This document shows, piece after piece, positions 14,437 through 64,000 of a stretch of 64,000 nucleotides of DNA. Source of the DNA: Crossaster papposus (Eukaryota > Echinodermata > Asteroidea > Velatida > Solasteridae). The translations under genes were made by a program, and so were the position numbers. The stretch's first letter is position 1, and the number at the start of each line of letters is the position of its first letter. The stretch is taken from the NCBI GenBank assembly GCA_037893245.1, contig JBAIAA010000597.1:310001-374000 (forward strand). Reading direction: 5' to 3'. The notes beneath the pieces were generated by a model that saw only the letters and a list, made by a program, of their open reading frames with translations, ran no database searches and had not been told where the DNA came from.

Positions 14437-14493
14437 GATCGATGGATGGGTATTGGGTGTGTGTAAAACGCGCATCCGGACGCTATCGCGATG

Positions 14494-20095: not shown

Positions 20096-20097
20096 GT

Positions 20098-21884: not shown

Positions 21885-22084
21885 ACTTAAATGGCATGGA
21901 ATTTGGCACGCAATCATAGTATGTCATGAGAAAAATATTTGGCTGAAGGGCTGTTGCAATTTGTCCTTTAAAAAAATATAGGTAGGATAACAAGCAATTT
22001 TTAAAATGGCTACCATTGCACGTTATTCTACCTATATTTGTCAAAGGTCAAATCTGTGATGGCCCAAAGCCAAATATCTCATGA
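21885..22084 (+). mobile_element. Palindromic MITE-like element, copy 2, truncated by the satellite
   Basis: Same family as 388-612 in opposite orientation. The left arm (GGAATTTGGCACGCAATCAT, TCATGAGAAAAATATTTGG) is complete; the right arm pairs back from the centre (CCTATATTTGTCAAAGGTC, GGCCCAAAGCCAAATATCTC) and stops at CTCATGA, where satellite sequence begins. About 35-40 bases expected at the outer end of the right arm are missing. Confidence 0.6.
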
Positions 22085-22586
22085 GTAGAGTGGCCATATT
22101 TTTTTTACTGGAAATCAAAGATTAAGACTCCTAGAACAATTTTCTTTTCAAATTTATAGGGGTTGACCGAATGAATTTTTTTTATACTCCTCTCCGCACA
22201 AACCACCCCTAAACTGGTGGCCCAACTCTGGGCCCAGGTATCAATGTAGCCCCCCCGCCTCTATGCGAAATAGACCCTGGTATTGGTCTTTTCTGTGAAC
22301 GAAATCCCCCGAGTTGGAAGCCACGGGTCACCAATTCTTGATTTCCACAATTATTTCTACAATCAGTCCAATGTATAGGCCCCAGGGACCTCTTATTCAA
22401 AATTACCGGAGGGATCACAAAATATTAATGAGCTCGCGCGCAGTCATTTTCACTGATTTAGTCACATGCACCCTTTAATAGCACTTACTGGGGCCTTTGG
22501 TAAGAAAAATGGGACTCAAAACAATGACAATTTACCTAAAATACAGTAACCACTTCAAAAAAATAAATGCGGTGGACTTGCTGTTC

Positions 22587-22635
22587 TAAAATGGCGCGTA
22601 AAATGGCGCGCTACAGTTTAGTGCGCCGCCATCTT
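22587..22635 (+). promoter_or_regulatory. Conserved motif block in each satellite unit (twin TAAAATGGCGCG and YY1-like site)
   Basis: TAAAATGGCGCG occurs twice back to back (22587-22598 and 22599-22610), and 22625-22635 read on the minus strand is AAGATGGCGGC, a match to the YY1 consensus AANATGGCGGC. The arms TGGCGCGCTA and GTGCGCCGCCA are also partly inverted. The block appears unchanged in every unit I read. Binding is inference only. Confidence 0.5.
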
Positions 22636-22703
22636 TGATTCATATAGGTTCTACTACACTAAATACGGCGCTCATTGTAACCAACACAAAAATTGAAAGA
22701 AAG

Positions 22704-22719: not shown

Positions 22720-22720
22720 G

Positions 22721-23365
22721 CTCATGAGTAGAGTGGCCATATTTTTTTGACTGGAAATCAAAGATTAAGACTCCTAGAACAATTTTCTTTTCAAATTTAT
22801 AGGGGTTGACCGAATGAATTTTTTTTATACTCCTCTCCGAACAAACCACCCCTAAACTGGTGGCCCAGCTCTGGGCCCAGGTATCAATGTAGCCCCCCGC
22901 CTCTATGCGAAATAGACCCTGGTATTGGTCTTTTCTGTGAACGAAATCCCCCGAGTTGGAAGCCACGGGTCACCAATTCTTGATTTCCACAATTATTTCT
23001 ACAATCAGTCCAATGTATAGGCCCCAGGGACCTCTTATTCAAAATTACCGGAGGGATCACAAAATATTAATTAGCTCGCGCGCAGTCATTTTCACTGATT
23101 TAGTCACATGCACCCTTTAATAGCACTTACTGGGGCCTTTGGTAAGAAAAATGGGACTCAAAACAATGACAATTTACCTAAAATACAGTAACCACTTCAA
23201 AAAAAAAATTAATGCGGTGGACTTGCTGTTCTAAAATGGCGCGTAAAATGGCGCGCTACAGTTTAGTGCGCCGCCATCTTTGATTCATATAGGTTCTACT
23301 ACACTAAATACGGCGCTCATTGTAACCAACACAAAAATTGAAAGAAAGAGCGCCGCCTGGTGACG
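22721..23365 (+). repeat. Second satellite unit, B type, edge variant
   Basis: 645 bases, six-C subclass with AATTAGCTCG. It carries CCGAACAAACC where other units have CCGCACAA, another private edge change. Confidence 0.8.
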
Positions 23366-24009
23366 CTCATGAGTAGAGTGGCCATATTTTGTTGACTGGA
23401 AATCAAAGATTAAGACTCCTAGAACAATTTTCTTTTCAAATTTATAGGGGTTGACCGAATGAATTTGTTTTTATACTCCTATCCGCACAAGCCACCCCTA
23501 AACCGGTGGCCCAGCTCTGGGCCCAGGTATCAATGTAGCCCCCCCGCCTCTATGCGAAATAGACCCTGGTATTGGTCTTTTCTGTGAACGAATTCCCCCG
23601 AGTTGGAAGCCACGGGTCACCAATTCTTGATTTCCACAATTATTTCTACAATCAGTCCAATGTATAGGCCCCAGGGACCTCTTATTCAAAATTACCGGAG
23701 GGATCACAAAATATTAATGAGCTCGCGCGCAGTCATTTTCACTGATTTAGTCACATGCACCCTTTAATAGCACTTACTGGGGCCTTTGGTAAGAAAAATG
23801 GGACTCAAAACAATGACAATTTACCTAAAATACAGTAACCACTTCAAAAAAATAAATGCGGTGGACTTGCTGTTCTAAAATGGCGCGTAAAATGGCGCGC
23901 TACAGTTTAGTGCGCCGCCATCTTTGATTCATATAGGTTCTACTACACTAAATACGGCGCTCATTGTAACCAACACAAAAATTAAAAGAAAGAGCGCCGC
24001 CTGGTGACG
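23366..24009 (+). repeat. Representative type A satellite unit
   Basis: 644 bases. Diagnostic bases are TTTGTTGACTGG at the head, AATTTGTTTTTATACTCCTA, AAGCCACCCCTAAACCGG, GAATTC, AATGAGCTCG, seven A before TAAATGCGG, and ATTAAAAG at the tail. It contains one EcoRI site. Confidence 0.9.
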
Positions 24010-24653
24010 CTCATGAGTAGAGTGGCCATATTTTTTTTACTGGAAATCAAAGATTAAGACTCCTAGAACAATTTTCTTTTCAAATTTATAGGGGTTGACC
24101 GAATGAATTTTTTTTTATACTCCTCTCCGCACAAACCACCCCTAAACTGGTGGCCCAGCTCTGGGCCCAGGTATCAATGTAGCCCCCCCGCCTCTATGCG
24201 AAATAGACCCTGGTATTGGTCTTTTCTGTGAACGAAATCCCCCGAGTTGGAAGCCACGGGTCACCAATTCTTGATTTCCACAATTATTTCTACAATCAGT
24301 CCAATGTATAGGCCCCAGGGACCTCTTATTCAAAATTACCGGAGGGATCACAAAATATTAATGAGCTCGCGCGCAGTCATTTTCACTGATTTAGTCACAT
24401 GCACCCTTTAATAGCACTTACTGGGGCCTTTGGTAAGAAAAATGGGACTCAAAACAATGACAATTTACCTAAAATACAGTAACCACTTCAAAAAAATAAA
24501 TGCGGTGGACTTGCTGTTCTAAAATGGCGCGTAAAATGGCGCGCTACAGTTTAGTGCGCCGCCATCTTTGATTCATATAGGTTCTACTACACTAAATACG
24601 GCGCTCATTGTAACCAACACAAAAATTGAAAGAAAGAGCGCCGCCTGGTGACG
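24010..24653 (+). repeat. Representative type B satellite unit (seven-C subclass)
   Basis: 644 bases. Diagnostic bases are a T8 head, a T run in place of TTTGTTTTT, AAACCACCCCTAAACTGG, GAAATC, seven C, and ATTGAAAG at the tail. Seven such B7 units occur, starting 22078, 24010, 29168, 40767, 45278, 51720 and 55585. Confidence 0.85.
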
Positions 24654-27600
24654 CTCATGAGTAGAGTGGCCATATTTTGTTGACTGGAAATCAAAGATTA
24701 AGACTCCTAGAACAATTTTCTTTTCAAATTTATAGGGGTTGACCGAATGAATTTGTTTTTATACTCCTATCCGCACAAGCCACCCCTAAACCGGTGGCCC
24801 AGCTCTGGGCCCAGGTATCAATGTAGCCCCCCCGCCTCTATGCGAAATAGACCCTGGTATTGGTCTTTTCTGTGAACGAATTCCCCCGAGTTGGAAGCCA
24901 CGGGTCACCAATTCTTGATTTCCACAATTATTTCTACAATCAGTCCAATGTATAGGCCCCAGGGACCTCTTATTCAAAATTACCGGAGGGATCACAAAAT
25001 ATTAATGAGCTCGCGCGCAGTCATTTTCACTGATTTAGTCACATGCACCCTTTAATAGCACTTACTGGGGCCTTTGGTAAGAAAAATGGGACTCAAAACA
25101 ATGACAATTTACCTAAAATACAGTAACCACTTCAAAAAAATAAATGCGGTGGACTTGCTGTTCTAAAATGGCGCGTAAAATGGCGCGCTACAGTTTAGTG
25201 CGCCGCCATCTTTGATTCATATAGGTTCTACTACACTAAATACGGCGCTCATTGTAACCAACACAAAAATTAAAAGAAAGAGCGCCGCCTGGTGACGCTC
25301 ATGAGTAGAGTGGCCATATTTTTTTGACTGGAAATCAAAGATTAAGACTCCTAGAACAATTTTCTTTTCAAATTTATAGGGGTTGACCGAATGAATTTTT
25401 TTTTATACTCCTCTCCGCACAAACCACCCCTAAACTGGTGGCCCAGCTCTGGGCCCAGGTATCAATGTAGCCCCCCGCCTCTATGCGAAATAGACCCTGG
25501 TATTGGTCTTTTCTGTGAACGAAATCCCCCGAGTTGGAAGCCACGGGTCACCAATTCTTGATTTCCACAATTATTTCTACAATCAGTCCAATGTATAGGC
25601 CCCAGGGACCTCTTATTCAAAATTACCGGAGGGATCACAAAATATTAATTAGCTCGCGCGCAGTCATTTTCACTGATTTAGTCACATGCACCCTTTAATA
25701 GCACTTACTGGGGCCTTTGGTAAGAAAAATGGGACTCAAAACAATGACAATTTACCTAAAATACAGTAACCACTTCAAAAAAAAAATTAATGCGGTGGAC
25801 TTGCTGTTCTAAAATGGCGCGTAAAATGGCGCGCTACAGTTTAGTGCGCCGCCATCTTTGATTCATATAGGTTCTACTACACTAAATACGGCGCTCATTG
25901 TAACCAACACAAAAATTGAAAGAAAGAGCGCCGCCTGGTGACGCTCATGAGTAGAGTGGCCATATTTTGTTGACTGGAAATCAAAGATTAAGACTCCTAG
26001 AACAATTTTCTTTTCAAATTTATAGGGGTTGACCGAATGAATTTGTTTTTATACTCCTATCCGCACAAGCCACCCCTAAACCGGTGGCCCAGCTCTGGGC
26101 CCAGGTATCAATGTAGCCCCCCCGCCTCTATGCGAAATAGACCCTGGTATTGGTCTTTTCTGTGAACGAATTCCCCCGAGTTGGAAGCCACGGGTCACCA
26201 ATTCTTGATTTCCACAATTATTTCTACAATCAGTCCAATGTATAGGCCCCAGGGACCTCTTATTCAAAATTACCGGAGGGATCACAAAATATTAATGAGC
26301 TCGCGCGCAGTCATTTTCACTGATTTAGTCACATGCACCCTTTAATAGCACTTACTGGGGCCTTTGGTAAGAAAAATGGGACTCAAAACAATGACAATTT
26401 ACCTAAAATACAGTAACCACTTCAAAAAAATAAATGCGGTGGACTTGCTGTTCTAAAATGGCGCGTAAAATGGCGCGCTACAGTTTAGTGCGCCGCCATC
26501 TTTGATTCATATAGGTTCTACTACACTAAATACGGCGCTCATTGTAACCAACACAAAAATTAAAAGAAAGAGCGCCGCCTGGTGACGCTCATGAGTAGAG
26601 TGGCCATATTTTTTTGACTGGAAATCAAAGATTAAGACTCCTAGAACAATTTTCTTTTCAAATTTATAGGGGTTGACCGAATGAATTTTTTTTTATACTC
26701 CTCTCCGCACAAACCACCCCTAAACTGGTGGCCCAGCTCTGGGCCCAGGTATCAATGTAGCCCCCCGCCTCTATGCGAAATAGACCCTGGTATTGGTCTT
26801 TTCTGTGAACGAAATCCCCCGAGTTGGAAGCCACGGGTCACCAATTCTTGATTTCCACAATTATTTCTACAATCAGTCCAATGTATAGGCCCCAGGGACC
26901 TCTTATTCAAAATTACCGGAGGGATCACAAAATATTAATTAGCTCGCGCGCAGTCATTTTCACTGATTTAGTCACATGCACCCTTTAATAGCACTTACTG
27001 GGGCCTTTGGTAAGAAAAATGGGACTCAAAACAATGACAATTTACCTAAAATACAGTAACCACTTCAAAAAAAAAATTAATGCGGTGGACTTGCTGTTCT
27101 AAAATGGCGCGTAAAATGGCGCGCTACAGTTTAGTGCGCCGCCATCTTTGATTCATATAGGTTCTACTACACTAAATACGGCGCTCATTGTAACCAACAC
27201 AAAAATTGAAAGAAAGAGCGCCGCCTGGTGACGCTCATGAGTAGAGTGGCCATATTTTGTTGACTGGAAATCAAAGATTAAGACTCCTAGAACAATTTTC
27301 TTTTCAAATTTATAGGGGTTGACCGAATGAATTTGTTTTTATACTCCTATCCGCACAAGCCACCCCTAAACCGGTGGCCCAGCTCTGGGCCCAGGTATCA
27401 ATGTAGCCCCCCCGCCTCTATGCGAAATAGACCCTGGTATTGGTCTTTTCTGTGAACGAATTCCCCCGAGTTGGAAGCCACGGGTCACCAATTCTTGATT
27501 TCCACAATTATTTCTACAATCAGTCCAATGTATAGGCCCCAGGGACCTCTTATTCAAAATTACCGGAGGGATCACAAAATATTAATGAGCTCGCGCGCAG

Positions 27601-28523
27601 TCATTTTCACTGATTTAGTCACATGCACCCTTTAATAGCACTTACTGGGGCCTTTGGTAAGAAAAATGGGACTCAAAACAATGACAATTTACCTAAAATA
27701 CAGTAACCACTTCAAAAAAATAAATGCGGTGGACTTGCTGTTCTAAAATGGCGCGTAAAATGGCGCGCTACAGTTTAGTGCGCCGCCATCTTTGATTCAT
27801 ATAGGTTCTACTACACTAAATACGGCGCTCATTGTAACCAACACAAAAATTAAAAGAAAGAGCGCCGCCTGGTGACGCTCATGAGTAGAGTGGCCATATT
27901 TTTTTGACTGGAAATCAAAGATTAAGACTCCTAGAACAATTTTCTTTTCAAATTTATAGGGGTTGACCGAATGAATTTTTTTTTATACTCCTCTCCGCAC
28001 AAACCACCCCTAAACTGGTGGCCCAGCTCTGGGCCCAGGTATCAATGTAGCCCCCCGCCTCTATGCGAAATAGACCCTGGTATTGGTCTTTTCTGTGAAC
28101 GAAATCCCCCGAGTTGGAAGCCACGGGTCACCAATTCTTGATTTCCACAATTATTTCTACAATCAGTCCAATGTATAGGCCCCAGGGACCTCTTATTCAA
28201 AATTACCGGAGGGATCACAAAATATTAATTAGCTCGCGCGCAGTCATTTTCACTGATTTAGTCACATGCACCCTTTAATAGCACTTACTGGGGCCTTTGG
28301 TAAGAAAAATGGGACTCAAAACAATGACAATTTACCTAAAATACAGTAACCACTTCAAAAAAAAAATTAATGCGGTGGACTTGCTGTTCTAAAATGGCGC
28401 GTAAAATGGCGCGCTACAGTTTAGTGCGCCGCCATCTTTGATTCATATAGGTTCTACTACACTAAATACGGCGCTCATTGTAACCAACACAAAAATTGAA
28501 AGAAAGAGCGCCGCCTGGTGACG
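24654..28523 (+). repeat. Three successive 1290-bp A-B dimers
   Basis: Unit A starts recur at 24654, 25944, 27234 and 28524, exactly 1290 apart. All three B partners are the six-C subclass with AATTAG and a nine-A run, a subclass confined to the first third of the array. Confidence 0.9.
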
Positions 28524-31500
28524 CTCATGAGTAGAGTGGCCATATTTTGTTGACTGGAAATCAAAGATTAAGACTCCTAGAACAATTTTCTTTTCAAATT
28601 TATAGGGGTTGACCGAATGAATTTGTTTTTATACTCCTATCCGCACAAGCCACCCCTAAACCGGTGGCCCAGCTCTGGGCCCAGGTATCAATGTAGCCCC
28701 CCCGCCTCTATGCGAAATAGACCCTGGTATTGGTCTTTTCTGTGAACGAATTCCCCCGAGTTGGAAGCCACGGGTCACCAATTCTTGATTTCCACAATTA
28801 TTTCTACAATCAGTCCAATGTATAGGCCCCAGGGACCTCTTATTCAAAATTACCGGAGGGATCACAAAATATTAATGAGCTCGCGCGCAGTCATTTTCAC
28901 TGATTTAGTCACATGCACCCTTTAATAGCACTTACTGGGGCCTTTGGTAAGAAAAATGGGACTCAAAACAATGACAATTTACCTAAAATACAGTAACCAC
29001 TTCAAAAAAATAAATGCGGTGGACTTGCTGTTCTAAAATGGCGCGTAAAATGGCGCGCTACAGTTTAGTGCGCCGCCATCTTTGATTCATATAGGTTCTA
29101 CTACACTAAATACGGCGCTCATTGTAACCAACACAAAAATTAAAAGAAAGAGCGCCGCCTGGTGACGCTCATGAGTAGAGTGGCCATATTTTTTTTACTG
29201 GAAATCAAAGATTAAGACTCCTAGAACAATTTTCTTTTCAAATTTATAGGGGTTGACCGAATGAATTTTTTTTTATACTCCTCTCCGCACAAACCACCCC
29301 TAAACTGGTGGCCCAGCTCTGGGCCCAGGTATCAATGTAGCCCCCCCGCCTCTATGCGAAATAGACCCTGGTATTGGTCTTTTCTGTGAACGAAATCCCC
29401 CGAGTTGGAAGCCACGGGTCACCAATTCTTGATTTCCACAATTATTTCTACAATCAGTCCAATGTATAGGCCCCAGGGACCTCTTATTCAAAATTACCGG
29501 AGGGATCACAAAATATTAATGAGCTCGCGCGCAGTCATTTTCACTGATTTAGTCACATGCACCCTTTAATAGCACTTACTGGGGCCTTTGGTAAGAAAAA
29601 TGGGACTCAAAACAATGACAATTTACCTAAAATACAGTAACCACTTCAAAAAAATAAATGCGGTGGACTTGCTGTTCTAAAATGGCGCGTAAAATGGCGC
29701 GCTACAGTTTAGTGCGCCGCCATCTTTGATTCATATAGGTTCTACTACACTAAATACGGCGCTCATTGTAACCAACACAAAAATTGAAAGAAAGAGCGCC
29801 GCCTGGTGACGCTCATGAGTAGAGTGGCCATATTTTGTTGACTGGAAATCAAAGATTAAGACTCCTAGAACAATTTTCTTTTCAAATTTATAGGGGTTGA
29901 CCGAATGAATTTGTTTTTATACTCCTATCCGCACAAGCCACCCCTAAACCGGTGGCCCAGCTCTGGGCCCAGGTATCAATGTAGCCCCCCCGCCTCTATG
30001 CGAAATAGACCCTGGTATTGGTCTTTTCTGTGAACGAATTCCCCCGAGTTGGAAGCCACGGGTCACCAATTCTTGATTTCCACAATTATTTCTACAATCA
30101 GTCCAATGTATAGGCCCCAGGGACCTCTTATTCAAAATTACCGGAGGGATCACAAAATATTAATGAGCTCGCGCGCAGTCATTTTCACTGATTTAGTCAC
30201 ATGCACCCTTTAATAGCACTTACTGGGGCCTTTGGTAAGAAAAATGGGACTCAAAACAATGACAATTTACCTAAAATACAGTAACCACTTCAAAAAAATA
30301 AATGCGGTGGACTTGCTGTTCTAAAATGGCGCGTAAAATGGCGCGCTACAGTTTAGTGCGCCGCCATCTTTGATTCATATAGGTTCTACTACACTAAATA
30401 CGGCGCTCATTGTAACCAACACAAAAATTAAAAGAAAGAGCGCCGCCTGGTGACGCTCATGAGTAGAGTGGCCATATTTTTTTGACTGGAAATCAAAGAT
30501 TAAGACTCCTAGAACAATTTTCTTTTCAAATTTATAGGGGTTGACCGAATGAATTTTTTTTTATACTCCTCTCCGCACAAACCACCCCTAAACTGGTGGC
30601 CCAGCTCTGGGCCCAGGTATCAATGTAGCCCCCCGCCTCTATGCGAAATAGACCCTGGTATTGGTCTTTTCTGTGAACGAAATCCCCCGAGTTGGAAGCC
30701 ACGGGTCACCAATTCTTGATTTCCACAATTATTTCTACAATCAGTCCAATGTATAGGCCCCAGGGACCTCTTATTCAAAATTACCGGAGGGATCACAAAA
30801 TATTAATTAGCTCGCGCGCAGTCATTTTCACTGATTTAGTCACATGCACCCTTTAATAGCACTTACTGGGGCCTTTGGTAAGAAAAATGGGACTCAAAAC
30901 AATGACAATTTACCTAAAATACAGTAACCACTTCAAAAAAAAAATTAATGCGGTGGACTTGCTGTTCTAAAATGGCGCGTAAAATGGCGCGCTACAGTTT
31001 AGTGCGCCGCCATCTTTGATTCATATAGGTTCTACTACACTAAATACGGCGCTCATTGTAACCAACACAAAAATTGAAAGAAAGAGCGCCGCCTGGTGAC
31101 GCTCATGAGTAGAGTGGCCATATTTTGTTGACTGGAAATCAAAGATTAAGACTCCTAGAACAATTTTCTTTTCAAATTTATAGGGGTTGACCGAATGAAT
31201 TTGTTTTTATACTCCTATCCGCACAAGCCACCCCTAAACCGGTGGCCCAGCTCTGGGCCCAGGTATCAATGTAGCCCCCCCGCCTCTATGCGAAATAGAC
31301 CCTGGTATTGGTCTTTTCTGTGAACGAATTCCCCCGAGTTGGAAGCCACGGGTCACCAATTCTTGATTTCCACAATTATTTCTACAATCAGTCCAATGTA
31401 TAGGCCCCAGGGACCTCTTATTCAAAATTACCGGAGGGATCACAAAATATTAATGAGCTCGCGCGCAGTCATTTTCACTGATTTAGTCACATGCACCCTT

Positions 31501-34500
31501 TAATAGCACTTACTGGGGCCTTTGGTAAGAAAAATGGGACTCAAAACAATGACAATTTACCTAAAATACAGTAACCACTTCAAAAAAATAAATGCGGTGG
31601 ACTTGCTGTTCTAAAATGGCGCGTAAAATGGCGCGCTACAGTTTAGTGCGCCGCCATCTTTGATTCATATAGGTTCTACTACACTAAATACGGCGCTCAT
31701 TGTAACCAACACAAAAATTAAAAGAAAGAGCGCCGCCTGGTGACGCTCATGAGTAGAGTGGCCATATTTTTTTTACTGGAAATCAAAGATTAAGACTCCT
31801 AGAACAATTTTCTTTTCAAATTTATAGGGGTTGACCGAATGAATTTTTTTTTATACTCCTCTCCGCACAAACCACCCCTAAACTGGTGGCCCAGCTCTGG
31901 GCCCAGGTATCAATGTAGCCCCCCGCCTCTATGCGAAATAGACCCTGGTATTGGTCTTTTCTGTGAACGAAATCCCCCGAGTTGGAAGCCACGGGTCACC
32001 AATTCTTGATTTCCACAATTATTTCTACAATCAGTCCAATGTATAGGCCCCAGGGACCTCTTATTCAAAATTACCGGAGGGATCACAAAATATTAATGAG
32101 CTCGCGCGCAGTCATTTTCACTGATTTAGTCACATGCACCCTTTAATAGCACTTACTGGGGCCTTTGGTAAGAAAAATGGGACTCAAAACAATGACAATT
32201 TACCTAAAATACAGTAACCACTTCAAAAAAATAAATGCGGTGGACTTGCTGTTCTAAAATGGCGCGTAAAATGGCGCGCTACAGTTTAGTGCGCCGCCAT
32301 CTTTGATTCATATAGGTTCTACTACACTAAATACGGCGCTCATTGTAACCAACACAAAAATTAAAAGAAAGAGCGCCGCCTGGTGACGCTCATGAGTAGA
32401 GTGGCCATATTTTTTTGACTGGAAATCAAAGATTAAGACTCCTAGAACAATTTTCTTTTCAAATTTATAGGGGTTGACCGAATGAATTTTTTTTTATACT
32501 CCTCTCCGCACAAACCACCCCTAAACTGGTGGCCCAGCTCTGGGCCCAGGTATCAATGTAGCCCCCCGCCTCTATGCGAAATAGACCCTGGTATTGGTCT
32601 TTTCTGTGAACGAAATCCCCCGAGTTGGAAGCCACGGGTCACCAATTCTTGATTTCCACAATTATTTCTACAATCAGTCCAATGTATAGGCCCCAGGGAC
32701 CTCTTATTCAAAATTACCGGAGGGATCACAAAATATTAATTAGCTCGCGCGCAGTCATTTTCACTGATTTAGTCACATGCACCCTTTAATAGCACTTACT
32801 GGGGCCTTTGGTAAGAAAAATGGGACTCAAAACAATGACAATTTACCTAAAATACAGTAACCACTTCAAAAAAAAAATTAATGCGGTGGACTTGCTGTTC
32901 TAAAATGGCGCGTAAAATGGCGCGCTACAGTTTAGTGCGCCGCCATCTTTGATTCATATAGGTTCTACTACACTAAATACGGCGCTCATTGTAACCAACA
33001 CAAAAATTGAAAGAAAGAGCGCCGCCTGGTGACGCTCATGAGTAGAGTGGCCATATTTTGTTGACTGGAAATCAAAGATTAAGACTCCTAGAACAATTTT
33101 CTTTTCAAATTTATAGGGGTTGACCGAATGAATTTGTTTTTATACTCCTATCCGCACAAGCCACCCCTAAACCGGTGGCCCAGCTCTGGGCCCAGGTATC
33201 AATGTAGCCCCCCCGCCTCTATGCGAAATAGACCCTGGTATTGGTCTTTTCTGTGAACGAATTCCCCCGAGTTGGAAGCCACGGGTCACCAATTCTTGAT
33301 TTCCACAATTATTTCTACAATCAGTCCAATGTATAGGCCCCAGGGACCTCTTATTCAAAATTACCGGAGGGATCACAAAATATTAATGAGCTCGCGCGCA
33401 GTCATTTTCACTGATTTAGTCACATGCACCCTTTAATAGCACTTACTGGGGCCTTTGGTAAGAAAAATGGGACTCAAAACAATGACAATTTACCTAAAAT
33501 ACAGTAACCACTTCAAAAAAATAAATGCGGTGGACTTGCTGTTCTAAAATGGCGCGTAAAATGGCGCGCTACAGTTTAGTGCGCCGCCATCTTTGATTCA
33601 TATAGGTTCTACTACACTAAATACGGCGCTCATTGTAACCAACACAAAAATTAAAAGAAAGAGCGCCGCCTGGTGACGCTCATGAGTAGAGTGGCCATAT
33701 TTGTTTTACTGGAAATCAAAGATTAAGACTCCTAGAACAATTTTCTTTTCAAATTTATAGGGGTTGACCGAATGAATTTTTTTTTATACTCCTCTCCGCA
33801 CAAACCACCCCTAAACTGGTGGCCCAGCTCTGGGCCCAGGTATCAATGTAGCCCCCCGCCTCTATGCGAAATAGACCCTGGTATTGGTCTTTTCTGTGAA
33901 CGAAATCCCCCGAGTTGGAAGCCACGGGTCACCAATTCTTGATTTCCACAATTATTTCTACAATCAGTCCAATGTATAGGCCCCAGGGACCTCTTATTCA
34001 AAATTACCGGAGGGATCACAAAATATTAATGAGCTCGCGCGCAGTCATTTTCACTGATTTAGTCACATGCACCCTTTAATAGCACTTACTGGGGCCTTTG
34101 GTAAGAAAAATGGGACTCAAAACAATGACAATTTACCTAAAATACAGTAACCACTTCAAAAAAATAAATGCGGTGGACTTGCTGTTCTAAAATGGCGCGT
34201 AAAATGGCGCGCTACAGTTTAGTGCGCCGCCATCTTTGATTCATATAGGTTCTACTACACTAAATACGGCGCTCATTGTAACCAACACAAAAATTGAAAG
34301 AAAGAGCGCCGCCTGGTGACGCTCATGAGTAGAGTGGCCATATTTTGTTGACTGGAAATCAAAGATTAAGACTCCTAGAACAATTTTCTTTTCAAATTTA
34401 TAGGGGTTGACCGAATGAATTTGTTTTTATACTCCTATCCGCACAAGCCACCCCTAAACCGGTGGCCCAGCTCTGGGCCCAGGTATCAATGTAGCCCCCC

Positions 34501-37500
34501 CGCCTCTATGCGAAATAGACCCTGGTATTGGTCTTTTCTGTGAACGAATTCCCCCGAGTTGGAAGCCACGGGTCACCAATTCTTGATTTCCACAATTATT
34601 TCTACAATCAGTCCAATGTATAGGCCCCAGGGACCTCTTATTCAAAATTACCGGAGGGATCACAAAATATTAATGAGCTCGCGCGCAGTCATTTTCACTG
34701 ATTTAGTCACATGCACCCTTTAATAGCACTTACTGGGGCCTTTGGTAAGAAAAATGGGACTCAAAACAATGACAATTTACCTAAAATACAGTAACCACTT
34801 CAAAAAAATAAATGCGGTGGACTTGCTGTTCTAAAATGGCGCGTAAAATGGCGCGCTACAGTTTAGTGCGCCGCCATCTTTGATTCATATAGGTTCTACT
34901 ACACTAAATACGGCGCTCATTGTAACCAACACAAAAATTAAAAGAAAGAGCGCCGCCTGGTGACGCTCATGAGTAGAGTGGCCATATTTGTTTTACTGGA
35001 AATCAAAGATTAAGACTCCTAGAACAATTTTCTTTTCAAATTTATAGGGGTTGACCGAATGAATTTTTTTTTATACTCCTCTCCGCACAAACCACCCCTA
35101 AACTGGTGGCCCAGCTCTGGGCCCAGGTATCAATGTAGCCCCCCGCCTCTATGCGAAATAGACCCTGGTATTGGTCTTTTCTGTGAACGAAATCCCCCGA
35201 GTTGGAAGCCACGGGTCACCAATTCTTGATTTCCACAATTATTTCTACAATCAGTCCAATGTATAGGCCCCAGGGACCTCTTATTCAAAATTACCGGAGG
35301 GATCACAAAATATTAATGAGCTCGCGCGCAGTCATTTTCACTGATTTAGTCACATGCACCCTTTAATAGCACTTACTGGGGCCTTTGGTAAGAAAAATGG
35401 GACTCAAAACAATGACAATTTACCTAAAATACAGTAACCACTTCAAAAAAATAAATGCGGTGGACTTGCTGTTCTAAAATGGCGCGTAAAATGGCGCGCT
35501 ACAGTTTAGTGCGCCGCCATCTTTGATTCATATAGGTTCTACTACACTAAATACGGCGCTCATTGTAACCAACACAAAAATTGAAAGAAAGAGCGCCGCC
35601 TGGTGACGCTCATGAGTAGAGTGGCCATATTTTGTTGACTGGAAATCAAAGATTAAGACTCCTAGAACAATTTTCTTTTCAAATTTATAGGGGTTGACCG
35701 AATGAATTTGTTTTTATACTCCTATCCGCACAAGCCACCCCTAAACCGGTGGCCCAGCTCTGGGCCCAGGTATCAATGTAGCCCCCCCGCCTCTATGCGA
35801 AATAGACCCTGGTATTGGTCTTTTCTGTGAACGAATTCCCCCGAGTTGGAAGCCACGGGTCACCAATTCTTGATTTCCACAATTATTTCTACAATCAGTC
35901 CAATGTATAGGCCCCAGGGACCTCTTATTCAAAATTACCGGAGGGATCACAAAATATTAATGAGCTCGCGCGCAGTCATTTTCACTGATTTAGTCACATG
36001 CACCCTTTAATAGCACTTACTGGGGCCTTTGGTAAGAAAAATGGGACTCAAAACAATGACAATTTACCTAAAATACAGTAACCACTTCAAAAAAATAAAT
36101 GCGGTGGACTTGCTGTTCTAAAATGGCGCGTAAAATGGCGCGCTACAGTTTAGTGCGCCGCCATCTTTGATTCATATAGGTTCTACTACACTAAATACGG
36201 CGCTCATTGTAACCAACACAAAAATTGAAAGAAAGAGCGCCGCCTGGTGACGCTCATGAGTAGAGTGGCCATATTTTGTTGACTGGAAATCAAAGATTAA
36301 GACTCCTAGAACAATTTTCTTTTCAAATTTATAGGGGTTGACCGAATGAATTTGTTTTTATACTCCTATCCGCACAAGCCACCCCTAAACCGGTGGCCCA
36401 GCTCTGGGCCCAGGTATCAATGTAGCCCCCCCGCCTCTATGCGAAATAGACCCTGGTATTGGTCTTTTCTGTGAACGAATTCCCCCGAGTTGGAAGCCAC
36501 GGGTCACCAATTCTTGATTTCCACAATTATTTCTACAATCAGTCCAATGTATAGGCCCCAGGGACCTCTTATTCAAAATTACCGGAGGGATCACAAAATA
36601 TTAATGAGCTCGCGCGCAGTCATTTTCACTGATTTAGTCACATGCACCCTTTAATAGCACTTACTGGGGCCTTTGGTAAGAAAAATGGGACTCAAAACAA
36701 TGACAATTTACCTAAAATACAGTAACCACTTCAAAAAAATAAATGCGGTGGACTTGCTGTTCTAAAATGGCGCGTAAAATGGCGCGCTACAGTTTAGTGC
36801 GCCGCCATCTTTGATTCATATAGGTTCTACTACACTAAATACGGCGCTCATTGTAACCAACACAAAAATTAAAAGAAAGAGCGCCGCCTGGTGACGCTCA
36901 TGAGTAGAGTGGCCATATTTGTTTTACTGGAAATCAAAGATTAAGACTCCTAGAACAATTTTCTTTTCAAATTTATAGGGGTTGACCGAATGAATTTTTT
37001 TTTATACTCCTCTCCGCACAAACCACCCCTAAACTGGTGGCCCAGCTCTGGGCCCAGGTATCAATGTAGCCCCCCGCCTCTATGCGAAATAGACCCTGGT
37101 ATTGGTCTTTTCTGTGAACGAAATCCCCCGAGTTGGAAGCCACGGGTCACCAATTCTTGATTTCCACAATTATTTCTACAATCAGTCCAATGTATAGGCC
37201 CCAGGGACCTCTTATTCAAAATTACCGGAGGGATCACAAAATATTAATGAGCTCGCGCGCAGTCATTTTCACTGATTTAGTCACATGCACCCTTTAATAG
37301 CACTTACTGGGGCCTTTGGTAAGAAAAATGGGACTCAAAACAATGACAATTTACCTAAAATACAGTAACCACTTCAAAAAAAAAATTAATGCGGTGGACT
37401 TGCTGTTCTAAAATGGCGCGTAAAATGGCGCGCTACAGTTTAGTGCGCCGCCATCTTTGATTCATATAGGTTCTACTACACTAAATACGGCGCTCATTGT

Positions 37501-37542
37501 AACCAACACAAAAATTGAAAGAAAGAGCGCCGCCTGGTGACG

Positions 37543-45000: not shown

Positions 45001-46564
45001 TCATTTTCACTGATTTAGTCACATGCACCCTTTAATAGCACTTACTGGGGCCTTTGGTAAGAAAAATGGGACTCAAAACAATGACAATTTACCTAAAATA
45101 CAGTAACCACTTCAAAAAAATAAATGCGGTGGACTTGCTGTTCTAAAATGGCGCGTAAAATGGCGCGCTACAGTTTAGTGCGCCGCCATCTTTGATTCAT
45201 ATAGGTTCTACTACACTAAATACGGCGCTCATTGTAACCAACACAAAAATTAAAAGAAAGAGCGCCGCCTGGTGACGCTCATGAGTAGAGTGGCCATATT
45301 TTTTTTACTGGAAATCAAAGATTAAGACTCCTAGAACAATTTTCTTTTCAAATTTATAGGGGTTGACCGAATGAATTTTTTTTTATACTCCTCTCCGCAC
45401 AAACCACCCCTAAACTGGTGGCCCAGCTCTGGGCCCAGGTATCAATGTAGCCCCCCCGCCTCTATGCGAAATAGACCCTGGTATTGGTCTTTTCTGTGAA
45501 CGAAATCCCCCGAGTTGGAAGCCACGGGTCACCAATTCTTGATTTCCACAATTATTTCTACAATCAGTCCAATGTATAGGCCCCAGGGACCTCTTATTCA
45601 AAATTACCGGAGGGATCACAAAATATTAATGAGCTCGCGCGCAGTCATTTTCACTGATTTAGTCACATGCACCCTTTAATAGCACTTACTGGGGCCTTTG
45701 GTAAGAAAAATGGGACTCAAAACAATGACAATTTACCTAAAATACAGTAACCACTTCAAAAAAATAAATGCGGTGGACTTGCTGTTCTAAAATGGCGCGT
45801 AAAATGGCGCGCTACAGTTTAGTGCGCCGCCATCTTTGATTCATATAGGTTCTACTACACTAAATACGGCGCTCATTGTAACCAACACAAAAATTAAAAG
45901 AAAGAGCGCCGCCTGGTGACGCTCATGAGTAGAGTGGCCATATTTGTTTTACTGGAAATCAAAGATTAAGACTCCTAGAACAATTTTCTTTTCAAATTTA
46001 TAGGGGTTGACCGAATGAATTTTTTTTTATACTCCTCTCCGCACAAACCACCCCTAAACTGGTGGCCCAGCTCTGGGCCCAGGTATCAATGTAGCCCCCC
46101 GCCTCTATGCGAAATAGACCCTGGTATTGGTCTTTTCTGTGAACGAAATCCCCCGAGTTGGAAGCCACGGGTCACCAATTCTTGATTTCCACAATTATTT
46201 CTACAATCAGTCCAATGTATAGGCCCCAGGGACCTCTTATTCAAAATTACCGGAGGGATCACAAAATATTAATGAGCTCGCGCGCAGTCATTTTCACTGA
46301 TTTAGTCACATGCACCCTTTAATAGCACTTACTGGGGCCTTTGGTAAGAAAAATGGGACTCAAAACAATGACAATTTACCTAAAATACAGTAACCACTTC
46401 AAAAAAATAAATGCGGTGGACTTGCTGTTCTAAAATGGCGCGTAAAATGGCGCGCTACAGTTTAGTGCGCCGCCATCTTTGATTCATATAGGTTCTACTA
46501 CACTAAATACGGCGCTCATTGTAACCAACACAAAAATTGAAAGAAAGAGCGCCGCCTGGTGACG
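42054..46564 (+). repeat. Seven-unit higher-order repeat, copy 2 (4511 bp)
   Basis: Same seven subclasses in the same order and the same total length as 37543-42053, so this is a block duplication of seven units at once. The following units depart from the pattern (AAB...). Confidence 0.88.
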
Positions 46565-49500: not shown

Positions 49501-52500
49501 CGCAGTCATTTTCACTGATTTAGTCACATGCACCCTTTAATAGCACTTACTGGGGCCTTTGGTAAGAAAAATGGGACTCAAAACAATGACAATTTACCTA
49601 AAATACAGTAACCACTTCAAAAAAAAAATTAATGCGGTGGACTTGCTGTTCTAAAATGGCGCGTAAAATGGCGCGCTACAGTTTAGTGCGCCGCCATCTT
49701 TGATTCATATAGGTTCTACTACACTAAATACGGCGCTCATTGTAACCAACACAAAAATTGAAAGAAAGAGCGCCGCCTGGTGACGCTCATGAGTAGAGTG
49801 GCCATATTTTGTTGACTGGAAATCAAAGATTAAGACTCCTAGAACAATTTTCTTTTCAAATTTATAGGGGTTGACCGAATGAATTTGTTTTTATACTCCT
49901 ATCCGCACAAGCCACCCCTAAACCGGTGGCCCAGCTCTGGGCCCAGGTATCAATGTAGCCCCCCCGCCTCTATGCGAAATAGACCCTGGTATTGGTCTTT
50001 TCTGTGAACGAATTCCCCCGAGTTGGAAGCCACGGGTCACCAATTCTTGATTTCCACAATTATTTCTACAATCAGTCCAATGTATAGGCCCCAGGGACCT
50101 CTTATTCAAAATTACCGGAGGGATCACAAAATATTAATGAGCTCGCGCGCAGTCATTTTCACTGATTTAGTCACATGCACCCTTTAATAGCACTTACTGG
50201 GGCCTTTGGTAAGAAAAATGGGACTCAAAACAATGACAATTTACCTAAAATACAGTAACCACTTCAAAAAAATAAATGCGGTGGACTTGCTGTTCTAAAA
50301 TGGCGCGTAAAATGGCGCGCTACAGTTTAGTGCGCCGCCATCTTTGATTCATATAGGTTCTACTACACTAAATACGGCGCTCATTGTAACCAACACAAAA
50401 ATTAAAAGAAAGAGCGCCGCCTGGTGACGCTCATGAGTAGAGTGGCCATATTTTTTTTACTGGAAATCAAAGATTAAGACTCCTAGAACAATTTTCTTTT
50501 CAAATTTATAGGGGTTGACCGAATGAATTTTTTTTTATACTCCTCTCCGCACAAACCACCCCTAAACTGGTGGCCCAGCTCTGGGCCCAGGTATCAATGT
50601 AGCCCCCCGCCTCTATGCGAAATAGACCCTGGTATTGGTCTTTTCTGTGAACGAAATCCCCCGAGTTGGAAGCCACGGGTCACCAATTCTTGATTTCCAC
50701 AATTATTTCTACAATCAGTCCAATGTATAGGCCCCAGGGACCTCTTATTCAAAATTACCGGAGGGATCACAAAATATTAATGAGCTCGCGCGCAGTCATT
50801 TTCACTGATTTAGTCACATGCACCCTTTAATAGCACTTACTGGGGCCTTTGGTAAGAAAAATGGGACTCAAAACAATGACAATTTACCTAAAATACAGTA
50901 ACCACTTCAAAAAAAAAATTAATGCGGTGGACTTGCTGTTCTAAAATGGCGCGTAAAATGGCGCGCTACAGTTTAGTGCGCCGCCATCTTTGATTCATAT
51001 AGGTTCTACTACACTAAATACGGCGCTCATTGTAACCAACACAAAAATTGAAAGAAAGAGCGCCGCCTGGTGACGCTCATGAGTAGAGTGGCCATATTTT
51101 GTTGACTGGAAATCAAAGATTAAGACTCCTAGAACAATTTTCTTTTCAAATTTATAGGGGTTGACCGAATGAATTTGTTTTTATACTCCTATCCGCACAA
51201 GCCACCCCTAAACCGGTGGCCCAGCTCTGGGCCCAGGTATCAATGTAGCCCCCCCGCCTCTATGCGAAATAGACCCTGGTATTGGTCTTTTCTGTGAACG
51301 AATTCCCCCGAGTTGGAAGCCACGGGTCACCAATTCTTGATTTCCACAATTATTTCTACAATCAGTCCAATGTATAGGCCCCAGGGACCTCTTATTCAAA
51401 ATTACCGGAGGGATCACAAAATATTAATGAGCTCGCGCGCAGTCATTTTCACTGATTTAGTCACATGCACCCTTTAATAGCACTTACTGGGGCCTTTGGT
51501 AAGAAAAATGGGACTCAAAACAATGACAATTTACCTAAAATACAGTAACCACTTCAAAAAAATAAATGCGGTGGACTTGCTGTTCTAAAATGGCGCGTAA
51601 AATGGCGCGCTACAGTTTAGTGCGCCGCCATCTTTGATTCATATAGGTTCTACTACACTAAATACGGCGCTCATTGTAACCAACACAAAAATTAAAAGAA
51701 AGAGCGCCGCCTGGTGACGCTCATGAGTAGAGTGGCCATATTTTTTTTACTGGAAATCAAAGATTAAGACTCCTAGAACAATTTTCTTTTCAAATTTATA
51801 GGGGTTGACCGAATGAATTTTTTTTTATACTCCTCTCCGCACAAACCACCCCTAAACTGGTGGCCCAGCTCTGGGCCCAGGTATCAATGTAGCCCCCCCG
51901 CCTCTATGCGAAATAGACCCTGGTATTGGTCTTTTCTGTGAACGAAATCCCCCGAGTTGGAAGCCACGGGTCACCAATTCTTGATTTCCACAATTATTTC
52001 TACAATCAGTCCAATGTATAGGCCCCAGGGACCTCTTATTCAAAATTACCGGAGGGATCACAAAATATTAATGAGCTCGCGCGCAGTCATTTTCACTGAT
52101 TTAGTCACATGCACCCTTTAATAGCACTTACTGGGGCCTTTGGTAAGAAAAATGGGACTCAAAACAATGACAATTTACCTAAAATACAGTAACCACTTCA
52201 AAAAAATAAATGCGGTGGACTTGCTGTTCTAAAATGGCGCGTAAAATGGCGCGCTACAGTTTAGTGCGCCGCCATCTTTGATTCATATAGGTTCTACTAC
52301 ACTAAATACGGCGCTCATTGTAACCAACACAAAAATTGAAAGAAAGAGCGCCGCCTGGTGACGCTCATGAGTAGAGTGGCCATATTTTGTTGACTGGAAA
52401 TCAAAGATTAAGACTCCTAGAACAATTTTCTTTTCAAATTTATAGGGGTTGACCGAATGAATTTGTTTTTATACTCCTATCCGCACAAGCCACCCCTAAA

Positions 52501-58500: not shown

Positions 58501-61500
58501 TCACAAAATATTAATGAGCTCGCGCGCAGTCATTTTCACTGATTTAGTCACATGCACCCTTTAATAGCACTTACTGGGGCCTTTGGTAAGAAAAATGGGA
58601 CTCAAAACAATGACAATTTACCTAAAATACAGTAACCACTTCAAAAAAATAAATGCGGTGGACTTGCTGTTCTAAAATGGCGCGTAAAATGGCGCGCTAC
58701 AGTTTAGTGCGCCGCCATCTTTGATTCATATAGGTTCTACTACACTAAATACGGCGCTCATTGTAACCAACACAAAAATTAAAAGAAAGAGCGCCGCCTG
58801 GTGACGCTCATGAGTAGAGTGGCCATATTTTTTTGACTGGAAATCAAAGATTAAGACTCCTAGAACAATTTTCTTTTCAAATTTATAGGGGTTGACCGAA
58901 TGAATTTGTTTTTATACTCCTATCCGCACAAGCCACCCCTAAACCGGTGGCCCAGCTCTGGGCCCAGGTATCAATGTAGCCCCCCCGCCTCTATGCGAAA
59001 TAGACCCTGGTATTGGTCTTTTCTGTGAACGAATTCCCCCGAGTTGGAAGCCACGGGTCACCAATTCTTGATTTCCACAATTATTTCTACAATCAGTCCA
59101 ATGTATAGGCCCCAGGGACCTCTTATTCAAAATTACCGGAGGGATCACAAAATATTAATGAGCTCGCGCGCAGTCATTTTCACTGATTTAGTCACATGCA
59201 CCCTTTAATAGCACTTACTGGGGCCTTTGGTAAGAAAAATGGGACTCAAAACAATGACAATTTACCTAAAATACAGTAACCACTTCAAAAAAATAAATGC
59301 GGTGGACTTGCTGTTCTAAAATGGCGCGTAAAATGGCGCGCTACAGTTTAGTGCGCCGCCATCTTTGATTCATATAGGTTCTACTACACTAAATACGGCG
59401 CTCATTGTAACCAACACAAAAATTAAAAGAAAGAGCGCCGCCTGGTGACGCTCATGAGTAGAGTGGCCATATTTTTTTGACTGGAAATCAAAGATTAAGA
59501 CTCCTAGAACAATTTTCTTTTCAAATTTATAGGGGTTGACCGAATGAATTTTTTTTTATACTCCTCTCCGCACAAACCACCCCTAAACCGGTGGCCCAGC
59601 TCTGGGCCCAGGTATCAATGTAGCCCCCCGCCTCTATGCGAAATAGACCCTGGTATTGGTCTTTTCTGTGAACGAAATCCCCCGAGTTGGAAGCCACGGG
59701 TCACCAATTCTTGATTTCCACAATTATTTCTACAATCAGTCCAATGTATAGGCCCCAGGGACCTCTTATTCAAAATTACCGGAGGGATCACAAAATATTA
59801 ATGAGCTCGCGCGCAGTCATTTTCACTGATTTAGTCACATGCACCCTTTAATAGCACTTACTGGGGCCTTTGGTAAGAAAAATGGGACTCAAAACAATGA
59901 CAATTTACCTAAAATACAGTAACCACTTCAAAAAAATAAATGCGGTGGACTTGCTGTTCTAAAATGGCGCGTAAAATGGCGCGCTACAGTTTAGTGCGCC
60001 GCCATCTTTGATTCATATAGGTTCTACTACACTAAATACGGCGCTCATTGTAACCAACACAAAAATTGAAAGAAAGAGCGCCGCCTGGTGACGCTCATGA
60101 GTAGAGTGGCCATATTTTGTTGACTGGAAATCAAAGATTAAGACTCCTAGAACAATTTTCTTTTCAAATTTATAGGGGTTGACCGAATGAATTTGTTTTT
60201 ATACTCCTATCCGCACAAGCCACCCCTAAACCGGTGGCCCAGCTCTGGGCCCAGGTATCAATGTAGCCCCCCCGCCTCTATGCGAAATAGACCCTGGTAT
60301 TGGTCTTTTCTGTGAACGAATTCCCCCGAGTTGGAAGCCACGGGTCACCAATTCTTGATTTCCACAATTATTTCTACAATCAGTCCAATGTATAGGCCCC
60401 AGGGACCTCTTATTCAAAATTACCGGAGGGATCACAAAATATTAATGAGCTCGCGCGCAGTCATTTTCACTGATTTAGTCACATGCACCCTTTAATAGCA
60501 CTTACTGGGGCCTTTGGTAAGAAAAATGGGACTCAAAACAATGACAATTTACCTAAAATACAGTAACCACTTCAAAAAAATAAATGCGGTGGACTTGCTG
60601 TTCTAAAATGGCGCGTAAAATGGCGCGCTACAGTTTAGTGCGCCGCCATCTTTGATTCATATAGGTTCTACTACACTAAATACGGCGCTCATTGTAACCA
60701 ACACAAAAATTAAAAGAAAGAGCGCCGCCTGGTGACGCTCATGAGTAGAGTGGCCATATTTTTTTTACTGGAAATCAAAGATTAAGACTCCTAGAACAAT
60801 TTTCTTTTCAAATTTATAGGGGTTGACCGAATGAATTTTTTTTTATACTCCTCTCCGCACAAACCACCCCTAAACTGGTGGCCCAGCTCTGGGCCCAGGT
60901 ATCAATGTAGCCCCCCGCCTCTATGCGAAATAGACCCTGGTATTGGTCTTTTCTGTGAACGAAATCCCCCGAGTTGGAAGCCACGGGTCACCAATTCTTG
61001 ATTTCCACAATTATTTCTACAATCAGTCCAATGTATAGGCCCCAGGGACCTCTTATTCAAAATTACCGGAGGGATCACAAAATATTAATGAGCTCGCGCG
61101 CAGTCATTTTCACTGATTTAGTCACATGCACCCTTTAATAGCACTTACTGGGGCCTTTGGTAAGAAAAATGGGACTCAAAACAATGACAATTTACCTAAA
61201 ATACAGTAACCACTTCAAAAAAAAAATTAATGCGGTGGACTTGCTGTTCTAAAATGGCGCGTAAAATGGCGCGCTACAGTTTAGTGCGCCGCCATCTTTG
61301 ATTCATATAGGTTCTACTACACTAAATACGGCGCTCATTGTAACCAACACAAAAATTGAAAGAAAGAGCGCCGCCTGGTGACGCTCATGAGTAGAGTGGC
61401 CATATTTTGTTGACTGGAAATCAAAGATTAAGACTCCTAGAACAATTTTCTTTTCAAATTTATAGGGGTTGACCGAATGAATTTGTTTTTATACTCCTAT

Positions 61501-64000
61501 CCGCACAAGCCACCCCTAAACCGGTGGCCCAGCTCTGGGCCCAGGTATCAATGTAGCCCCCCCGCCTCTATGCGAAATAGACCCTGGTATTGGTCTTTTC
61601 TGTGAACGAATTCCCCCGAGTTGGAAGCCACGGGTCACCAATTCTTGATTTCCACAATTATTTCTACAATCAGTCCAATGTATAGGCCCCAGGGACCTCT
61701 TATTCAAAATTACCGGAGGGATCACAAAATATTAATGAGCTCGCGCGCAGTCATTTTCACTGATTTAGTCACATGCACCCTTTAATAGCACTTACTGGGG
61801 CCTTTGGTAAGAAAAATGGGACTCAAAACAATGACAATTTACCTAAAATACAGTAACCACTTCAAAAAAATAAATGCGGTGGACTTGCTGTTCTAAAATG
61901 GCGCGTAAAATGGCGCGCTACAGTTTAGTGCGCCGCCATCTTTGATTCATATAGGTTCTACTACACTAAATACGGCGCTCATTGTAACCAACACAAAAAT
62001 TAAAAGAAAGAGCGCCGCCTGGTGACGCTCATGAGTAGAGTGGCCATATTTTTTTTACTGGAAATCAAAGATTAAGACTCCTAGAACAATTTTCTTTTCA
62101 AATTTATAGGGGTTGACCGAATGAATTTTTTTTTATACTCCTCTCCGCACAAACCACCCCTAAACCGGTGGCCCAGCTCTGGGCCCAGGTATCAATGTAG
62201 CCCCCCGCCTCTATGCGAAATAGACCCTGGTATTGGTCTTTTCTGTGAACGAAATCCCCCGAGTTGGAAGCCACGGGTCACCAATTCTTGATTTCCACAA
62301 TTATTTCTACAATCAGTCCAATGTATAGGCCCCAGGGACCTCTTATTCAAAATTACCGGAGGGATCACAAAATATTAATGAGCTCGCGCGCAGTCATTTT
62401 CACTGATTTAGTCACATGCACCCTTTAATAGCACTTACTGGGGCCTTTGGTAAGAAAAATGGGACTCAAAACAATGACAATTTACCTAAAATACAGTAAC
62501 CACTTCAAAAAAAAAATTAATGCGGTGGACTTGCTGTTCTAAAATGGCGCGTAAAATGGCGCGCTACAGTTTAGTGCGCCGCCATCTTTGATTCATATAG
62601 GTTCTACTACACTAAATACGGCGCTCATTGTAACCAACACAAAAATTGAAAGAAAGAGCGCCGCCTGGTGACGCTCATGAGTAGAGTGGCCATATTTTGT
62701 TGACTGGAAATCAAAGATTAAGACTCCTAGAACAATTTTCTTTTCAAATTTATAGGGGTTGACCGAATGAATTTGTTTTTATACTCCTATCCGCACAAGC
62801 CACCCCTAAACCGGTGGCCCAGCTCTGGGCCCAGGTATCAATGTAGCCCCCCCGCCTCTATGCGAAATAGACCCTGGTATTGGTCTTTTCTGTGAACGAA
62901 TTCCCCCGAGTTGGAAGCCACGGGTCACCAATTCTTGATTTCCACAATTATTTCTACAATCAGTCCAATGTATAGGCCCCAGGGACCTCTTATTCAAAAT
63001 TACCGGAGGGATCACAAAATATTAATGAGCTCGCGCGCAGTCATTTTCACTGATTTAGTCACATGCACCCTTTAATAGCACTTACTGGGGCCTTTGGTAA
63101 GAAAAATGGGACTCAAAACAATGACAATTTACCTAAAATACAGTAACCACTTCAAAAAAATAAATGCGGTGGACTTGCTGTTCTAAAATGGCGCGTAAAA
63201 TGGCGCGCTACAGTTTAGTGCGCCGCCATCTTTGATTCATATAGGTTCTACTACACTAAATACGGCGCTCATTGTAACCAACACAAAAATTGAAAGAAAG
63301 AGCGCCGCCTGGTGACGCTCATGAGTAGAGTGGCCATATTTTTTTGACTGGAAATCAAAGATTAAGACTCCTAGAACAATTTTCTTTTCAAATTTATAGG
63401 GGTTGACCGAATGAATTTGTTTTTATACTCCTATCCGCACAAGCCACCCCTAAACCGGTGGCCCAGCTCTGGGCCCAGGTATCAATGTAGCCCCCCCGCC
63501 TCTATGCGAAATAGACCCTGGTATTGGTCTTTTCTGTGAACGAATTCCCCCGAGTTGGAAGCCACGGGTCACCAATTCTTGATTTCCACAATTATTTCTA
63601 CAATCAGTCCAATGTATAGGCCCCAGGGACCTCTTATTCAAAATTACCGGAGGGATCACAAAATATTAATGAGCTCGCGCGCAGTCATTTTCACTGATTT
63701 AGTCACATGCACCCTTTAATAGCACTTACTGGGGCCTTTGGTAAGAAAAATGGGACTCAAAACAATGACAATTTACCTAAAATACAGTAACCACTTCAAA
63801 AAAATAAATGCGGTGGACTTGCTGTTCTAAAATGGCGCGTAAAATGGCGCGCTACAGTTTAGTGCGCCGCCATCTTTGATTCATATAGGTTCTACTACAC
63901 TAAATACGGCGCTCATTGTAACCAACACAAAAATTGAAAGAAAGAGCGCCGCCTGGTGACGCTCATGAGTAGAGTGGCCATATTTTGTTGACTGGAAATC

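What the first reader, a model, noticed from the sequence alone, without database searches (positions are those of the whole stretch)
22078..64000. Large two-class satellite array with nested higher-order structure
The array shows three levels: a 644-bp monomer, a 1287-1290-bp A-B dimer, and in one place a 4511-bp seven-unit repeat. Such hierarchy is well known for primate alpha satellite but is less often documented in marine invertebrates, and a monomer of 644 bp is long for a satellite. The array fills 42 kb here and continues past the window.
Basis: seen in the sequence. Interest (0 to 1): 0.75.

Follow-up and report, generated by a model that had tools for sequence, protein, structure and literature searches.

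The report
Young two-type satellite DNA array
A 42-kb stretch of almost identical 644-base tandem repeats, mostly alternating between two slightly different versions, sits in what is probably an echinoderm genome and looks like an ordinary, recently expanded satellite DNA shaped by unequal crossing-over.

Summary
The array is real. From 22078 to the window end there are 65 full units and one partial unit of 643-646 bp, head to tail. Two classes, A (32) and B (33), alternate at 55 of 64 junctions, against 32.5 in shuffles (largest of 20,000: 47). The 644-bp monomer and 1287-1290-bp dimer are sound. The 4511-bp seven-unit repeat is not a standing third level. It is one tandem duplication (units 25-31 to 32-38) among several of 2 to 10 units, and 35 of 1000 within-class shuffles give a run as long.

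A and B differ at only four fixed sites (mean 98.5% identity), far less than monomers inside alpha-satellite higher-order repeats. In units 3-65 every variable site has its rarer state in at least five units, which points to recent block amplification or to over-polished assembly. Eight of nine breaks in the alternation carry a hybrid monomer, as unequal crossing-over by an odd number of units would leave; the eight are of four sequence types. The left edge meets a truncated transposon-like palindrome.

No RNA family, protein domain, sub-repeat or CENP-B box was found. The host is probably an echinoderm. New member of a known kind, modest interest. Assembly fidelity, copy number and chromosomal location were not testable.

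The parts
22078..64000 (.). Satellite array: 65 full 643-646-bp units and one partial, head to tail, reaching the window end
   Evidence: k-mer distances and anchored unit segmentation; no shorter period
23363..24006 (.). Example of a B unit (644 bp); 27 of 65 full units are exactly this sequence (type 2)
24007..24650 (.). Example of an A unit (type 3; 4 of 65 full units are this sequence)
37388..47182 (.). The 4511-bp seven-unit tandem duplication: exact 5284-bp match of 37388 onward with 41899 onward; whole units 25-31 equal units 32-38
40995..52337 (.). Overlapping ten-unit repeat (shift 6442 bp): exact 4901-bp match of 40995 onward with 47437 onward
22841..31773 (.). Eight-unit repeat (shift 5158 bp): exact 3775-bp match of 22841 onward with 27999 onward
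21900..22084 (.). Palindromic MITE-like repeat (left end approximate), truncated at its right end, that forms the left boundary of the array; it and the array share CTCATGA (22078-22084)
   Evidence: second copy at about 411-598; self-complementary

Best explanation
A non-coding satellite array in an echinoderm-like nuclear genome. Two slightly different 644-bp monomers became neighbours as an A-B dimer. The dimer was then amplified by unequal homologous crossing-over between misaligned copies. Exchanges shifted by an even number of units keep the alternation. Exchanges shifted by an odd number create AA or BB neighbours with a hybrid monomer at the join. Larger misalignments make tandem duplications of 6 to 10 units, of which the 4511-bp repeat is one. 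The expansion is recent, because no private mutation is seen inside the array. Shown: the array, the classes, the alternation, the hybrids, the duplications and the edge junction. Inferred: the mechanism, the youth and the host. It probably has no coding or RNA function; a role in heterochromatin or at the centromere is possible but untested.
For: Alternation 55 of 64 against shuffle mean 32.5. Of nine alternation breaks, eight carry a monomer whose start and end belong to different classes: six switch between alignment columns 231 and 625, two between 29 and 105; the ninth is at the array edge. Site 625 of a unit agrees with site 29 of the next in 62 of 64 junctions, and with the class of its own unit in 58 of 65, so classes run across the arbitrary unit border as expected of recombined blocks. 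Exact repeats at shifts of 2, 6, 7, 8 and 10 units. In 63 interior units (40,596 bp) no variable site has its rarer state in fewer than 5 units. A units nearer each other are slightly more alike (r=0.19, reached by 14 of 2000 permutations). Variants carried by one or two units occur only in the two edge units. No Rfam match; no ORF of 120 aa or more in the array; longest stop-free stretch 71 aa in the 3864 bp translated; no Pfam match for 4 stretches.
Against: The eight hybrids are of only four sequence types (u16; u22, u39 and u64; u30 and u37; u55 and u58), so perhaps four or five independent events are seen. Gene conversion or rolling-circle reinsertion could give much of the same pattern. 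B units vary only at columns 29 and 625, while A units vary at many columns, which plain dimer amplification does not predict; with about five independent interior A-only variants this asymmetry is weak. The absence of rare variants also fits over-polished assembly.
Confidence: 0.8

Rival explanations
1. Assembly artefact: a real but differently ordered or collapsed array whose units were stacked or homogenised by assembly and polishing, so that the order, the seven-unit repeat and the lack of rare variants are not biological.
For: No variable site with its rarer state in fewer than 5 of 63 interior units; only 16 distinct sequences among 65 units; reads and coverage not available.
Against: Length variants (six or seven C; the three-A insertion) are kept and confined to class A in consistent combinations. 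The longest exact repeat inside the array is 5284 bp, shorter than typical long accurate reads (recalled), so the order is resolvable in principle. Hybrid monomers at breaks make sense biologically.
Confidence: 0.15
2. A functional centromeric satellite of this species: the dimer is the unit on which kinetochore chromatin is built.
For: HOR arrays of alpha satellite form human centromeres (PMC5615363 passages). A 644-bp unit could hold about four nucleosomes (inference).
Against: No CENP-B box in the array: with one mismatch allowed, 1 match in the window, outside the array, against 9.3 expected in shuffles of the window. No 161-bp sub-repeat. No abundance or location data; the whole-genome search did not complete.
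Confidence: 0.15
3. A transposon-borne tandem repeat: the array grew from a tandem segment inside or at the end of the adjacent MITE or THAP/DDE transposon.
For: The array abuts a truncated palindromic element that follows a THAP/DDE transposase; a foldback-transposon origin of a satellite is reported in Drosophila virilis (PMC4079207, title and abstract start in the listing).
Against: No similarity of two monomers to any part of 1-22074 beyond 12-26-bp matches with E of 1 or more. The MITE copy near 411-598 has no satellite beside it. The shared 7 bases fit a chance or repair junction.
Confidence: 0.05

Closest known systems
Primate alpha satellite higher-order repeats
   Same: Head-to-tail monomers grouped in a multi-monomer register; same-class monomers more alike than neighbours; duplications of whole-unit multiples.
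   Different: Monomers within an alpha HOR are 70-90% identical (PMC5615363 passages); here A and B are 98.5% identical. Monomer 644 bp, not ~170; no CENP-B box; register only dimeric and interrupted nine times.
Dimeric satellite DNAs of beetles and of Meloidogyne nematodes
   Same: Two monomer types alternating as the repeating dimer in an invertebrate (PMC5615363 passages; PMC3694981 passages).
   Different: In the nematodes the two monomers of the dimer are highly divergent and about 169 bp each; here they are near-identical and 644 bp.
Long-monomer repeats of marine bivalves (e.g. Ac4p1 of Adamussium, ~726 bp)
   Same: Long repeat unit in a marine invertebrate (PMC5874043 passages).
   Different: Ac4p1 has a variable number of sub-repeats and a more complex organisation; the present monomer has no sub-repeat above chance. 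Sequences were not compared.

Membership tests
Satellite DNA | Long head-to-tail array of one repeat unit | tested here: met
   65 full units over 42 kb
Satellite DNA | Non-coding | tested here: met
   No Rfam match; no ORF of 120 aa or more in the array; longest stop-free stretch 71 aa in the 3864 bp translated; no Pfam match for four stretches
Satellite DNA | High copy number in the genome, often in heterochromatin | not testable with these tools
   The genome search 'own' not answered in any of 9 attempts
Higher-order repeat (HOR) organisation | Adjacent monomers amplified together as a larger unit | tested here: met
   Dimer alternation 55 of 64 junctions, beyond all 20,000 shuffles
Higher-order repeat (HOR) organisation | Counterpart monomers more alike than monomers within the unit | tested here: met
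   Mean differences per unit pair: B-B 0.39, A-A 3.09, A-B 9.87
Higher-order repeat (HOR) organisation | A regular further level (seven units) | tested here: not met
   One duplication; whole-unit identity at distance 7 is 0.22, below 8 and 10; 35 of 1000 within-class shuffles give a run as long. Against this, 4511 ranks third in the gap-free base comparison
Alpha-satellite-like centromeric DNA | CENP-B box | tested here: not met
   No match in the array with up to one mismatch; motif letters recalled
Alpha-satellite-like centromeric DNA | Centromeric location / CENP-A binding | not testable with these tools
   No chromosome or chromatin data
Tandem RNA gene array (5S, snRNA, tRNA) | A recognisable RNA gene in each unit | tested here: not met
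   Rfam 0 matches over the window, and 0 at E up to 5 on three units; ARAGORN (bacterial code) 0

The most novel reading that the evidence does not exclude
A very young echinoderm satellite, possibly centromeric, caught while its dimeric higher-order register is spreading: the odd-shift hybrid monomers are a readable record of individual unequal exchanges, with class B nearly fixed and class A still polymorphic.
Probability: 0.2. Interest if true: 0.5.

Novelty: new member of a known kind. Interest (0 to 1): 0.27.

Why it matters
If the assembly is right, the array is a clear, low-noise record of how a two-monomer register begins: a few founder sequences, identifiable crossover points and few later mutations to blur them. 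None of the papers listed by the searches aimed at echinoderm satellites is about one by title or abstract start; one search listed 20 of 1,467, and subscription journals are mostly missing, so this is only a hint that they are thinly covered. The repeat could be a useful cytogenetic probe. The kind of structure itself is well known.

Tried and rejected
RNA-gene array: rejected. Coding repeat: rejected. Monomer built of shorter nucleosome-sized sub-repeats: rejected; quarters and halves of one unit are no more alike than in 300 resampled sequences (298 and 300 of 300 score at least as high). CENP-B box: none in the array. Origin of the monomer from the elements to its left: no similarity. Relatives in viral and prokaryote contigs by one exact 22-mer each: none, as expected for a eukaryotic satellite. 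A 71-aa stop-free stretch of the monomer as bait for other copies: no candidate. A DNA fold of one unit is unremarkable (z -1.33; 2 of 20 shuffles fold as well). Published 644-bp satellite: '644 bp' with 'satellite DNA' and 'monomer' gave one paper, on a filarial parasite repeat, seen only in the listing; '644-bp' with 'satellite' and 'tandem' gave none.

Full report
Observation. From 22078 to the end of the window nearly every 20-mer recurs, mostly at distances of 642-647 and their multiples. Anchored at CTCATGAGTAGAGTGGCCAT with up to three errors (so units begin three bases before it), the array divides into 65 full units and a 42-bp partial one, with spacings of 643 to 646 bp. No consecutive 15-mer distance is shorter than 640. 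The unit has no internal repeat above chance, no Rfam family and no bacterial-code tRNA. The array has no ORF of 120 aa or more. In the 3864 bp translated in six frames the longest stop-free stretch is 71 aa, and the four stretches scanned match no Pfam family.

Classes. Alignment of the 65 full units gives 16 distinct sequences; one B sequence alone accounts for 27. Sites 105, 119, 129 and 231 are fixed between class A (32) and class B (33). Sites 29, 142 and 625 are nearly so, and sites 28, 32, 177, 357 and 484-495 vary inside A only. Mean differences per unit pair are 0.39 (B-B), 3.09 (A-A) and 9.87 (A-B, 98.5% identity). So 'two classes' is right but they are shallow. The classes alternate at 55 of 64 junctions, against 32.5 +/- 4.0 in 20,000 shuffles with a maximum of 47. 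The seven fixed or nearly fixed differences leave a 394-column stretch without one of them; a gap that long occurs in 2.5% of random placements. I left columns 32, 177 and 484-495 out of that count, where A is split; 357 and 484-495 lie inside the stretch. It is therefore only weak, after-the-fact support for exchange between classes there.

The seven-unit repeat. There is an exact 5284-bp match at shift 4511 (37388 with 41899), but also 4901 bp at shift 6442 (10 units), 3775 bp at 5158 (8 units), 3407 bp at 1290 (2 units) and 3405 bp at 3865 (6 units). Units 25-31 equal units 32-38. Shuffling sequence types within class gives a run of 7 or more in 35 of 1000 trials. Over the whole array, whole-unit identity at distance 7 is 0.22, against 0.18 at 5 and 9, 0.30 at 8 and 0.31 at 10; class agreement is 0.53 at 7 against 0.45 at 5 and 0.43 at 9. 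In the gap-free base comparison 4511 ranks third. I therefore read it as one tandem duplication among several, not as a level of a hierarchy.

Mechanism. The breaks in the alternation are informative. Of nine (four AA, five BB), eight carry a hybrid monomer at the join: u16, u22, u30, u37, u39 and u64 change class between sites 231 and 625, and u55 and u58 between 29 and 105. u65 is a further mosaic, and u01-u02 at the edge shows no such hybrid. Site 625 predicts site 29 of the next unit in 62 of 64 junctions. This is what unequal crossing-over by an odd number of monomers produces. The eight hybrids are of four sequence types (u16; u22, u39, u64; u30, u37; u55, u58), so perhaps four or five independent events are seen. 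Gene conversion is not excluded.

Age. In units 3-65 (40,596 bp) every variable site has its rarer state in at least five units; inside a class smaller counts occur at A/B sites (site 142 in 2 A units, 29 in 3 B units). Variants in one or two units lie only in the two edge units. With none seen, the 95% upper bound on private variants is 7.4e-5 per base. Either the array expanded very recently from a few founder sequences, or polishing removed rare variants. I cannot separate these without reads. B is almost invariant and A is polymorphic, but with about five independent A-only interior variants the asymmetry is only suggestive.

Left edge. The array begins at CTCATGA. To its left lies a palindromic repeat (about 21900-22077). 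A second copy at about 411-598 continues past its own CTCATGA with other sequence and has no satellite beside it. So the element is truncated at the array border. The seven shared bases may be a microhomology junction (inference). But four T that precede CTCATGA in the element's other arm are missing at the border, so the break may also lie just before CTCATGA and the match may be chance. The monomer itself resembles nothing in 1-22074.

Host. The BEL/Pao polyprotein at 9389-13048 (minus strand) is closest to proteins named from Lytechinus pictus (70%), Holothuria leucospilota (64%), Strongylocentrotus purpuratus (65%) and Diadema antillarum (63%), with unnamed sources between. Every named protein among the first 16 of the 40 listed is from an echinoderm, and the next ones fall to 27% or less apart from one at 29% over a short part (only 7,988 candidates were scored). 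The DDE transposase has its best match (83% over 71%) in an unnamed source, and the other listed matches are at about 40-61%, mostly unnamed. Of the 120 of 2,249 listed, the named ones are corals and an anemone, Ptychodera, Priapulus, Pecten and Ixodes, and none is an echinoderm. An echinoderm host is therefore probable but rests on one mobile element. The genome itself could not be searched.

Comparison with the literature. In passages of PMC5615363, alpha-satellite HOR monomers are 70-90% identical within the unit and over 95% between units, and dimeric HORs are described in beetles. PMC3694981 passages describe dimeric and complex HORs in nematodes. PMC5874043 passages give a ~726-bp repeat in a scallop. 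Ten paper searches were made. None listed a 644-bp echinoderm satellite by title or abstract start, but one search listed 20 of 1,467 papers and the library lacks most subscription journals. Verdict: a real, probably young, dimeric satellite array; a new member of a known kind.

Noticed in passing
window 6260-14273: A young-looking BEL/Pao LTR retrotransposon on the minus strand: about 1.19-kb LTRs (6260-7443 and 13091-14273) 99.1% identical, with a 5-bp target duplication GCCCT on both sides; the coding region is in two overlapping frames.
   Followed up: partly
window 20026-21651: A THAP-domain ORF followed by an HTH_Tnp_4/DDE_Tnp_4 transposase ORF, ending about 430 bp before the array; best relative 83% identical over 71% in an unnamed source.
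   Followed up: partly
window 411-598 and 21900-22084: Two copies of a palindromic MITE-like repeat, about 83% alike over 134 bases; the second is cut short where the satellite begins.
   Followed up: yes
window 3822-5610: A reverse-transcriptase gene in two overlapping frames, probably a decayed LINE (type recalled; RVT_1 match only).
   Followed up: no
window 14487-15965: A cluster of degenerate direct and inverted repeats, with a motif CGTTTTCACGAAGAG recurring at 15071-15548.
   Followed up: no
each unit, alignment columns about 515-640: A CpG-rich stretch with two copies of AAAATGGCGCG and an inverted GCCGCCATCTTT; these resemble YY1-type sites (recalled, not tested).
   Followed up: no
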